NCBI GenBank assembly: GCA_002867475.1
Contig: PKTL01000069.1
Location: 1 to 64,000 of the forward strand
Source: Candidatus Woesearchaeota archaeon
GTDB taxonomy: Archaea > Nanobdellota > Nanobdellia > Woesearchaeales > BM511
Reading direction: 5' to 3'
Length of the DNA stretch: 64,000 nucleotides
In this document: in pieces, positions 25,539 to 43,788 of the stretch
How the letters are laid out: each line of letters starts with the position of its first letter
Position numbering within the stretch: position 1 is the stretch's first letter
Made by a program: the position numbers and the translations under genes
The notes under the pieces: generated by a model
The model's database searches: none
What the model was told of the DNA's origin: nothing
Seen by the model: the letters and a program-made list of their open reading frames with translations, nothing else

Positions 25539-25567
25539 GAAAATTTTAAGAATAAGTATAAGAAAAT

Positions 25568-25678
25568 AGCGGGGAGAGGATTTGAACCTCCGACCTCCGG
25601 GTTTCTTGATCTCTGATCGAGAATTCGACCTTGGAGATATATGAGCCCGACGGGCACTCCTAGCTGCCCTACCCCGCT
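25568..25678 (-). tRNA. Initiator tRNA-Met (CAT) with a 37-base intron
   Basis: The minus strand folds as a complete tRNA: acceptor AGCGGGG/CCCCGCT, D stem GGGC/GCCC, anticodon stem TCGGG/CCCGG around loop CTCATAA, and T arm with TTCAAAT. A1-T72 and three consecutive G-C pairs in the anticodon stem mark it as the archaeal initiator. The loop is split after position 37 by an intron at about 25603-25639, the standard site for the bulge-helix-bulge splicing endonuclease. Confidence 0.9.
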
Positions 25679-38472: not shown

Positions 38473-38582
38473 GCTGCGATGGGACAATCTGGTACTCCAC
38501 CGGCCTTGAGATTAAAAACAAGGTTTTTATACGAGTTAGCCGGCTTGCTTTGCATATCCCGGTTCAAATCCGGGTCGCAGCG
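38473..38582 (+). tRNA. tRNA-Ser (TGA) with a 27-base intron
   Basis: Acceptor GCTGCGA/TCGCAGC with discriminator G, anticodon stem CCGGC/GCCGG around loop CTTGAGA (anticodon TGA), a long class II variable arm, and T arm CCCGG-TTCAAAT-CCGGG. The loop is interrupted by an intron at about 38511-38537, placed after position 37. Discriminator G and the long variable arm agree with serine. Confidence 0.88.
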
Positions 38583-42973: not shown

Positions 42974-43075
42974 AGATATTAGTTACTATAAATAGTATAA
43001 AAAATATACTATTACTAGAATATAGAAAAGTATATAAACACATTTTTGATTTTAATTTTTAGGGGTTGAAAATTG

Positions 43076-43609
43076 ATGTTTGATATTCAAAGCAAGACAG
43101 TTAAAAAAATTGAAAATGGACTGAAAGATTCTTTTTCTAAAATTCGTGAAGAGATGGATATCCACTTAGACACCATCAATGAAAACACCAATGAACTTGC
43201 TGCAAATTATGATTATATGATGAAGCTTGAAGGAAAGATAGACAAGCTAAATGAAAGAATTGATGAACTCACTATAATGATGGAAGAGTTTGTAGGTATG
43301 CCTAAAAAGATTGGTTACAAAGAGCAGTTTGAAAACATAGTTCTTAGCAATAGAGAACAAGAAGTTTTTTTAGTATTATATTCTTCACAAACAGACCTTT
43401 CCCATAATGAGATTGCGAGAAAATTAGGACTTACTATCCAATTGGTCGATCAGAACATTGATGGGATGATCTCAAAAGGAGTTCCTATAATAAAAAGATA
43501 TAATGAAGGTAAAGTCACTTTAAAAGTTGATGATGACTTCAAGAGTCTTCAGGCAAAAGAGAACATACTTAATATTAACGAAGCAATTGTTACGAGCATC
43601 ATGCAATAA
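43076..43609 (+). CDS. Coiled-coil protein with winged-helix domain
   Basis: 177 residues: a coiled coil (about 5-80, NTNELAANYDYMMKLEGKIDKLNERIDELTIMMEEF) followed by a helix-turn-helix (LSNREQEVFLVLYSSQTDLSHNEIARKLGLTIQLVDQNIDGMISKGVPI) and a strand pair (EGKVTLKVDDDF). Probably a dimeric DNA-binding regulator. TATA-like AAAGTATATAAAC lies about 50 bases before the ATG. Confidence 0.7.
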   Translation: MFDIQSKTVKKIENGLKDSFSKIREEMDIHLDTINENTNELAANYDYMMKLEGKIDKLNERIDELTIMMEEFVGMPKKIGYKEQFENIVLSNREQEVFLVLYSSQTDLSHNEIARKLGLTIQLVDQNIDGMISKGVPIIKRYNEGKVTLKVDDDFKSLQAKENILNINEAIVTSIMQ

Positions 43610-43619
43610 ATTTTTCTTT

Positions 43620-43788
43620 GGACTTGTAGCTCAGCCTGGTATGAGCGCTCGGTTGGCATATGAAAAGTCAAGCTTTTCGAGTTTGGTTTGAAATCCGAAA
43701 ATCGAAAGGCCATGGGTTCACACTAAAATTCTTCTAGAATTTTGTGCACAAAAGAGCTTGACTTTTTTAGTGAATTCCACAGAGTCCA
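43620..43788 (+). tRNA. tRNA-like gene with GGC (Ala) anticodon and two or three insertions
   Basis: GGACTTG-TA-GCTC...GAGC-G-CTCGG-TTGGCAT gives a normal 5' half with anticodon GGC. The 3' half is broken up: the anticodon stem can close with CCGAA (43695) or better TCGAG (43677). AGGCC-ATGGG-TTCA is interrupted by about 52 bases (43721-43772, ends CACTAAAA/TTTTAGTG) before AAT-TCCAC-AGAGTCC-A. Mature parts fit about 74 bases in 169. Position 3-70 is A-T rather than the G-T required by alanyl-tRNA synthetase, and 7-66 and 49-65 mismatch. It may be a multi-intron gene or a degenerate one. Confidence 0.5.

What the first reader, a model, noticed from the sequence alone, without database searches (positions are those of the whole stretch)
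43620..43788. tRNA gene with several insertions that pair with each other, and a missing alanine identity pair
The anticodon is GGC, but 1-72 to 3-70 reads G-C, G-C, A-T without the G3-U70 pair needed by AlaRS. The 3' half is split by an anticodon-loop insertion, extra bases before AGGCC and about 52 bases inside the T loop. AAAAGTCAAGCT (43663-43674) in the first insertion is perfectly complementary to AGCTTGACTTTT (43755-43766) in the last. Pairing of 12 bases is unlikely by chance and would bring the two insertions together.
Basis: partly seen in the sequence, partly recalled or inferred. Interest (0 to 1): 0.7.

Follow-up and report, generated by a model that had tools for sequence, protein, structure and literature searches.

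The report
tRNA-Ala gene broken by hairpin element
In a Woesearchaeota-type archaeon, the only alanine-tRNA (GGC) gene we could find has an ordinary intron plus a 52-base double-hairpin element, which recurs across this genome and its relatives, wedged into its T loop, so the gene is probably broken, and the element points to an apparently unreported pattern of hairpin inserts next to tRNA genes.

Summary
The locus is a real tRNA-Ala(GGC) gene: 75-nt body, A3-T70 instead of G3-T70, and two insertions, not three. Insertion 1 (43659-43700) is an ordinary bulge-helix-bulge (BHB) intron at 37/38; relatives have it too, with G3-U70 intact. Insertion 2 (43721-43772, exactly at 57/58) has no BHB at the only joint that restores the tRNA. 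It is one copy of a dispersed element of two 26-nt hairpins (about 20 other loci in this genome, hits in 41 of 144 relatives, the weakest perhaps chance) with strong compensatory covariation. In a sister genus the syntenic locus holds an intact tRNA-Ala(GGC) followed by a second copy of its 3' end with the element at the same T-loop site. Best reading: deletion between these repeats left the element in the only tRNA copy, which is decaying. The 12-base complementarity is rare (P about 7e-4) but lacks comparative support, and an unrelated genomic copy pairs almost as well. Unexpected: in three genomes 15 of 88 tRNA genes carry a nearby copy of their own end, always stopping exactly at nt 1 or nt 73, across a hairpin-rich insert.

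The parts
43620..43658 (+). tRNA-Ala(GGC) nt 1-37 (acceptor 5' strand, D arm, 5' anticodon arm); A3, and an extra T in the D loop
   Evidence: 97% identity over nt 8-38 to tRNA-Ala(GGC) of relatives; comparison by eye with L070-L080
43659..43700 (+). intron at 37/38 with canonical BHB: central helix TTGG/CCGA, bulges CA^T and AA^A
   Evidence: BHB script, 4/4 central pairs; six relatives' introns at the same site also 4/4
43701..43720 (+). tRNA nt 38-57 (3' anticodon arm, variable loop, T-stem 5' strand, TTCA)
   Evidence: comparison with relatives
43721..43772 (+). element E: dispersed double-hairpin element inserted at tRNA 57/58
   Evidence: pattern copies at C30, C43, C62; covariance model: window copy 77.6 bits, about 20 further distinct loci in the genome at E<=0.01, 42 of 145 genomes including this one
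43721..43746 (+). hairpin 1 of E (CAC, bulged T, AAAATTC...GAATTTT, GTG)
   Evidence: 3 of 10 pairs with change on both sides in the 4-copy alignment; all 10 in the 40-locus set
43747..43772 (+). hairpin 2 of E (CAC, AAAAGAG...CTTTTTT, bulged A, GTG)
   Evidence: 3 of 10 pairs with change on both sides; 9 of 10 in the 40-locus set
43773..43788 (+). tRNA nt 58-73 (T-stem 3' strand, acceptor 3' strand, A73); no encoded CCA
   Evidence: 3' end AGAGTCCA identical to several relatives' Ala(GGC)
43073..43609 (+). upstream protein-coding gene that anchors synteny with the sister genus
   Evidence: 56% identical protein directly upstream of intact tRNA-Ala(GGC) at G002:C29

Best explanation
The locus is the native tRNA-Ala(GGC) gene of a Woesearchaeota-type archaeon, now disrupted. 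Its first insertion is an ordinary BHB intron. Its second is a copy of a dispersed, non-coding double-hairpin element (E) in the T loop between nt 57 and 58. Proposed history: an ancestor had an intact tRNA followed by a second copy of the tRNA 3' end carrying E in its T loop, as the syntenic locus in the sister genus still has. A deletion between the two GGTTCA repeats removed the intact 3' end and left E inside the only tRNA body. With no BHB motif at that joint the splicing endonuclease cannot remove E in the standard way, so the RNA is not a usable tRNA, and it has lost G3-U70 and picked up stem mismatches (7-66, 27-43, 49-65). The intron-E complementarity is a by-product of two A/T-rich hairpins with complementary loops. 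Shown: gene identity, intron 1 BHB, absence of BHB at E, E as a covarying repeat family, syntenic arrangement. Inferred: the deletion, loss of function, and mobility of E.
For: E recurs at other sites in the genome and in relatives. In the four copies found by sequence alone, 100% of cells pair and 6 pairs show compensatory change; this holds over 40 loci with flat slid controls, though that set was chosen by the model. G002:C29 has the same upstream gene and, before it, the same methyltransferase and S24e-like genes, then an intact intron-less tRNA-Ala(GGC) with G3-U70, then GGTTCA-E-AATCCCGGCCAGTCCA. G000:C21 shows the same layout for tRNA-Ser(GGA). BHB: intron 1 has 4/4 central pairs, the E joint 0/4; a T-loop insertion in G124 scores 4/4 at 59/60 with perfect stems. 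The tRNA body has A3-U70 plus three stem-end mismatches, while relatives' bodies are clean.
Against: No other Ala(GGC) gene was found, and GCU+GCC make up 273 of 746 Ala codons in the window's long ORFs, so a functional reader is expected somewhere; tRNA-Ala(UGC) is the only other one seen. The D arm and 5' anticodon arm are nearly unmutated and intron 1 keeps its BHB, which is not typical of an old pseudogene. The deletion is inferred from one sister genome; E could have inserted directly. A relaxed structure (UUCAC/GUGAA with 2- and 1-nt bulges) could form at the E joint.
Confidence: 0.6

Rival explanations
1. The gene is functional: both insertions are removed, the T-loop one by a lenient splicing endonuclease acting on a relaxed bulge-helix-bulge, and the A3-U70 tRNA is charged by an unusual AlaRS or used otherwise.
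For: No other Ala(GGC) found while GCU/GCC codons are common. A same-order relative (G124) has a T-loop insertion with a perfect BHB in a clean tRNA-Ala(GGC), so T-loop introns probably exist in this tRNA. Intron 1 BHB is kept.
Against: 0 of 4 central pairs at the only joint giving UUCAAAU; shifted joints lose A58 or the loop length. The two other T-loop copies of E lie in duplicate 3' ends that need no splicing. A3-U70 and three mismatches.
Confidence: 0.15
2. The two insertions are partner introns: the 12-bp helix brings anticodon loop and T loop together to guide or couple splicing.
For: Perfect 12-nt complement, P about 7e-4 by shuffling; the whole transcript folds with z = -3.6 using this helix.
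Against: The sister-genus counterpart of E has no intron to pair with; the complement lies in the hairpin-2 arm and loop of a repeat family, and an unrelated copy (C43) pairs 12/12 with G-U; the minimum-energy fold destroys the D and T arms. No covariation can be tested with one sequence.
Confidence: 0.05
3. Assembly artefact: the real genome has an intact tRNA plus a 3'-end copy with E, as in G002, and short-read assembly collapsed the repeat.
For: G002 and G000:C21 have exactly the layout that would collapse to this; the genome is an 84-contig draft.
Against: The shared repeat is only about 6-22 nt, shorter than usual k-mers; the same assembly resolved the layouts at C21, C3, C45 and C74; the tRNA body itself is degenerate.
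Confidence: 0.12
4. E inserted directly into the T loop of this tRNA, and the G002/C21 layouts arose by later repair that restored an intact 3' end upstream of E.
For: Junction GGTTCA-E-AAT is identical at all three loci.
Against: Several tRNA genes show intact gene + insert + end copy without E in a T loop, so that layout looks like the general rule.
Confidence: 0.08

Closest known systems
Non-canonical archaeal tRNA introns and tRNA-intron transposition in Thermoproteales (Fujishima et al. 2010, cited in PMC4090602)
   Same: Insertions at non-anticodon sites, with similar insert sequences at several tRNA loci
   Different: Those have BHB motifs at the junction; E does not, and most E copies are not in tRNA genes
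tRNA-gene disruption by a mobile element in Caldiarchaeum (PMC3293823)
   Same: A tRNA fragment near a tRNA gene, tied to a mobile element and tRNA disruption
   Different: There a 1.8-kb recombinase-coding element; here 44-108-nt non-coding hairpin inserts
tRNA gene fragments left by integrated elements (PMC9897764)
   Same: Partial copy of a tRNA end beside an intact tRNA
   Different: Reported archaeal inserts are about 9-23 kb; here under 110 nt and at both tRNA ends
Casposons (PMC4046053, PMC6977970)
   Same: Insertion at tRNA 3' ends with about 14-15-nt target duplication
   Different: The casposon target overlaps only the last 4-7 nt of the tRNA; here the copied segment lies wholly inside the tRNA and stops exactly at nt 73 or nt 1, and the inserts are tiny
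REP/BIME and palindrome-associated (IS200/IS605) MITE-like repeats (general knowledge; not compared by sequence)
   Same: Short dispersed pairs of imperfect hairpins, mostly between genes, mirror symmetric with bulges
   Different: No Y1 transposase found in this genome; no known terminal motif tested

Membership tests
tRNA-Ala(GGC) gene | GGC anticodon in an Ala(GGC)-like body | tested here: met
   97% over nt 8-38 to relatives' Ala(GGC); synteny with intact Ala(GGC) in G002
tRNA-Ala(GGC) gene | G3-U70 identity pair | tested here: not met
   A3-U70; relatives G3-U70
tRNA-Ala(GGC) gene (functional) | fully paired acceptor, anticodon and T stems | tested here: not met
   mismatches at 7-66 (G/A), 27-43 (C/A), 49-65 (A/C) once both insertions are removed (for the joined body)
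archaeal BHB tRNA intron (insertion 1) | 3-nt bulge, 4-bp helix, 3-nt bulge at the joint | tested here: met
   TTGG/CCGA, CA^T, AA^A
archaeal BHB tRNA intron (insertion 2, E) | 3-nt bulge, 4-bp helix, 3-nt bulge at the joint | tested here: not met
   0/4 pairs at 57/58
dispersed repeat (MITE/REP-like) | multiple copies at unrelated loci with conserved structure | tested here: met
IS200/IS605-derived MITE | resident Y1 transposase or a full-length relative with the same ends | tested here: not met
   no PF01797 match in this genome; relatives' genomes not tested
transposon with target-site duplication | direct repeats flanking E copies | tested here: inconclusive
   clear at C30 (CCACTGGACA), not general
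casposon | cas1-solo and polB, terminal inverted repeats, duplication overlapping the last 4-7 nt of the tRNA | not tested
   inserts are under 110 nt, so cannot encode them; no Cas1 search was made

The most novel reading that the evidence does not exclude
Woesearchaeales carry tiny non-coding hairpin elements that insert at tRNA genes by an unknown machinery that duplicates 10-18 nt of the tRNA and cuts exactly at the mature tRNA terminus (nt 1 or nt 73), and element-bearing T arms made this way are a route by which tRNA genes become interrupted.
Probability: 0.35. Interest if true: 0.75.

Novelty: new variant of a known kind. Interest (0 to 1): 0.5.

Why it matters
How archaeal tRNA genes gain insertions and fragments is an open question; proposed agents are kilobase mobile elements or transposing BHB introns. 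Here a syntenic pair (intact tRNA plus element-bearing 3' copy in one genus, element-bearing tRNA in another) suggests a concrete two-step route, and the exact nt 1 / nt 73 limits of the end copies make a testable prediction about the enzyme or the nucleic acid intermediate.

Tried and rejected
A third insertion before AGGCC: rejected by comparison with relatives. E as a BHB intron: rejected. Split or trans-spliced tRNA using a 3' end elsewhere: the only match (C54, AATTCCCGCAGAGTCCA) reads as coding sequence on the other strand, judged by eye. E mobilised by a resident Y1 transposase: none found. E in viral contigs: no exact-pattern match. General target-site duplication around all E copies: not supported. 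T-loop E in other families of the order: only chance-level pattern matches beyond the three known loci. A model of T-arm plus E was abandoned because the alignment went out of register.

Full report
What the locus is. The window lies on contig C65 of a 1.67-Mb, 84-contig, 95%-complete archaeal draft genome, G000. Its 16S and 23S rRNA match archaeal models, and the closest named relative of a neighbouring protein is a Woesearchaeota genome. ARAGORN sees no tRNA in the window and Rfam gives the locus only 18.9 bits. A 97% match over nt 8-38 to relatives' tRNA-Ala(GGC) identifies it. In relatives the gene reads, for example, GGGCTCTTAGCTCAGCCTGGTAGAGCGCTCGGTTGGCA[intron or none]ATCGGGAGGCCGCGGGTTCAAATCCCGCAGAGTCCA, with G3-U70. 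Removing both insertions here leaves GGACTTGTAGCTCAGCCTGGTATGAGCGCTCGGTTGGCAATCGAAAGGCCATGGGTTCAAATTCCACAGAGTCCA: A3-U70, an extra D-loop T, and mismatches at 7-66, 27-43 and 49-65.

First insertion. 43659-43700 is a canonical BHB intron at 37/38 (TTGG/CCGA, bulges CA^T and AA^A). Six relatives have the same geometry at the same site. The 'extra bases before AGGCC' in the finding are simply nt 38-43.

Second insertion. 43721-43772 (52 nt) sits exactly between nt 57 and 58. At that joint none of the four central BHB pairs forms, and shifted joints do not give a normal T loop. By contrast G124 has a T-loop insertion at 59/60 with a perfect BHB in a clean tRNA-Ala(GGC). The insertion matches other sites in the genome. 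Four copies found by sequence pattern alone form two hairpins with 100% of cells paired and six pairs changed on both sides, against 0-2 in slid controls. A covariance model finds about 20 further distinct loci in G000 at E up to 0.01 and matches in 42 of 145 genomes including G000; the weaker matches may be unrelated adjacent hairpins. Over 40 loci, the basal triplets of hairpins 1 and 2 pair in 39 and 37, whereas the alternative outer pairing forms in 19. The element is mirror-symmetric: 3 bp, bulge, stem-loop, then stem-loop, bulge, 3 bp. Most copies checked in G000 lie outside or at the edge of long open frames. No Y1 transposase was found and no viral contig holds the exact pattern.

The ortholog. 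The protein upstream (43073-43609) has its best match in G002 (same family), with the same S24e-like and methyltransferase genes before it. There it is followed by an intact intron-less tRNA-Ala(GGC) with G3-U70, and 26 nt after that by GGTTCA, a copy of the element, and AATCCCGGCCAGTCCA, a second copy of the tRNA 3' end. G000:C21 has the same layout for tRNA-Ser(GGA). A pattern search found no further case of the element in a T loop beyond these three loci; the other matches are at the level of the reversed-pattern control. Deleting one GGTTCA repeat and what lies between gives exactly the window's structure. I therefore infer deletion followed by decay. A third family member, G003, also has a clean Ala(GGC).

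The complementarity. It is real and unlikely by shuffling (0.07% at 12 or more). But it lies in the arm and loop of hairpin 2, which in the repeat family has its own pairing partner. Copy C43, with no tRNA context, pairs 12/12 with the intron when G-U is allowed. The intron hairpin core AGTCAAGCT also occurs in a hairpin upstream of tRNA-Thr(CGT). With one sequence there is no covariation test. I treat it as incidental, with low but non-zero odds of meaning.

A wider pattern. Testing 88 tRNA genes in G000, G002 and G003, ten genes (two of them near-identical Arg genes; an eleventh match is a neighbouring tRNA and is excluded) have a copy of their own 3' end within 200 nt downstream (score 10 or more), and all ten copies stop exactly at nt 73. 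Five have an upstream copy of their own 5' end, all starting exactly at nt 1. Controls give 0-1 of 88. The inserts between gene and copy (44-108 nt) are hairpin-rich: mean folding z -2.3 versus -0.15 for control windows. One 5'-side insert (L248) looks like the reverse complement of a 3'-side insert (L249) by eye. Only the Ala and Ser inserts contain E proper; others hold different hairpins. This looks like insertion with duplication of the tRNA end, but the mechanism is unknown; direct repeats are not general around E copies away from tRNAs.

Limits. The genome is a draft. tRNA detection is incomplete (tRNA-Ser(GGA) at C21 was missed by the Rfam search, and no Val tRNA was called), so absence of another Ala(GGC) is weak evidence. 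No expression data were available. Loss of function, the deletion and mobility of E are inferences.

Noticed in passing
L005, L013, L014, L024, L183, L185, L202, L239, L249, L255 (3' side); L011, L015, L021, L201, L248 (5' side): tRNA genes with a nearby partial copy of their own end, limits exactly at nt 73 or nt 1, separated by 44-108-nt hairpin-rich inserts.
   Followed up: partly
L080 (G124:C9, minus strand): tRNA-Ala(GGC) with clean stems, a 37/38 intron and a second insertion at T-loop 59/60 with a perfect BHB: a likely true T-loop intron in this order.
   Followed up: partly
L013 (G000:C45): tRNA-Arg(CCT) followed by two successive copies of its 3' end with roughly 47-49-nt spacers, array-like.
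   Followed up: no
L155-L168 (G026): A high-copy repeat of roughly 140 nt with inverted ends (AAAAATTGCC...GGCAATTTTT) contains a double hairpin matching the E model; often at contig ends.
   Followed up: no
L015 (G000:C30:3770-3895, probably tRNA-Thr GGT): The anticodon-loop intron itself holds two adjacent hairpins with a weak match to the E model (18 bits).
   Followed up: no
window 25567-25678 (-) and 38473-38582 (+): Two intron-bearing tRNA-Ser genes (CGA, TGA) in the window, missed by ARAGORN without intron options.
   Followed up: no
Downstream inserts of L005, L109, L133: GGATTTGAA(C), the reverse complement of the T-arm motif (G)TTCAAATCC, recurs (with GATTTGAAC in L133) in the spacer between tRNA and its 3'-end copy.
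   Followed up: no
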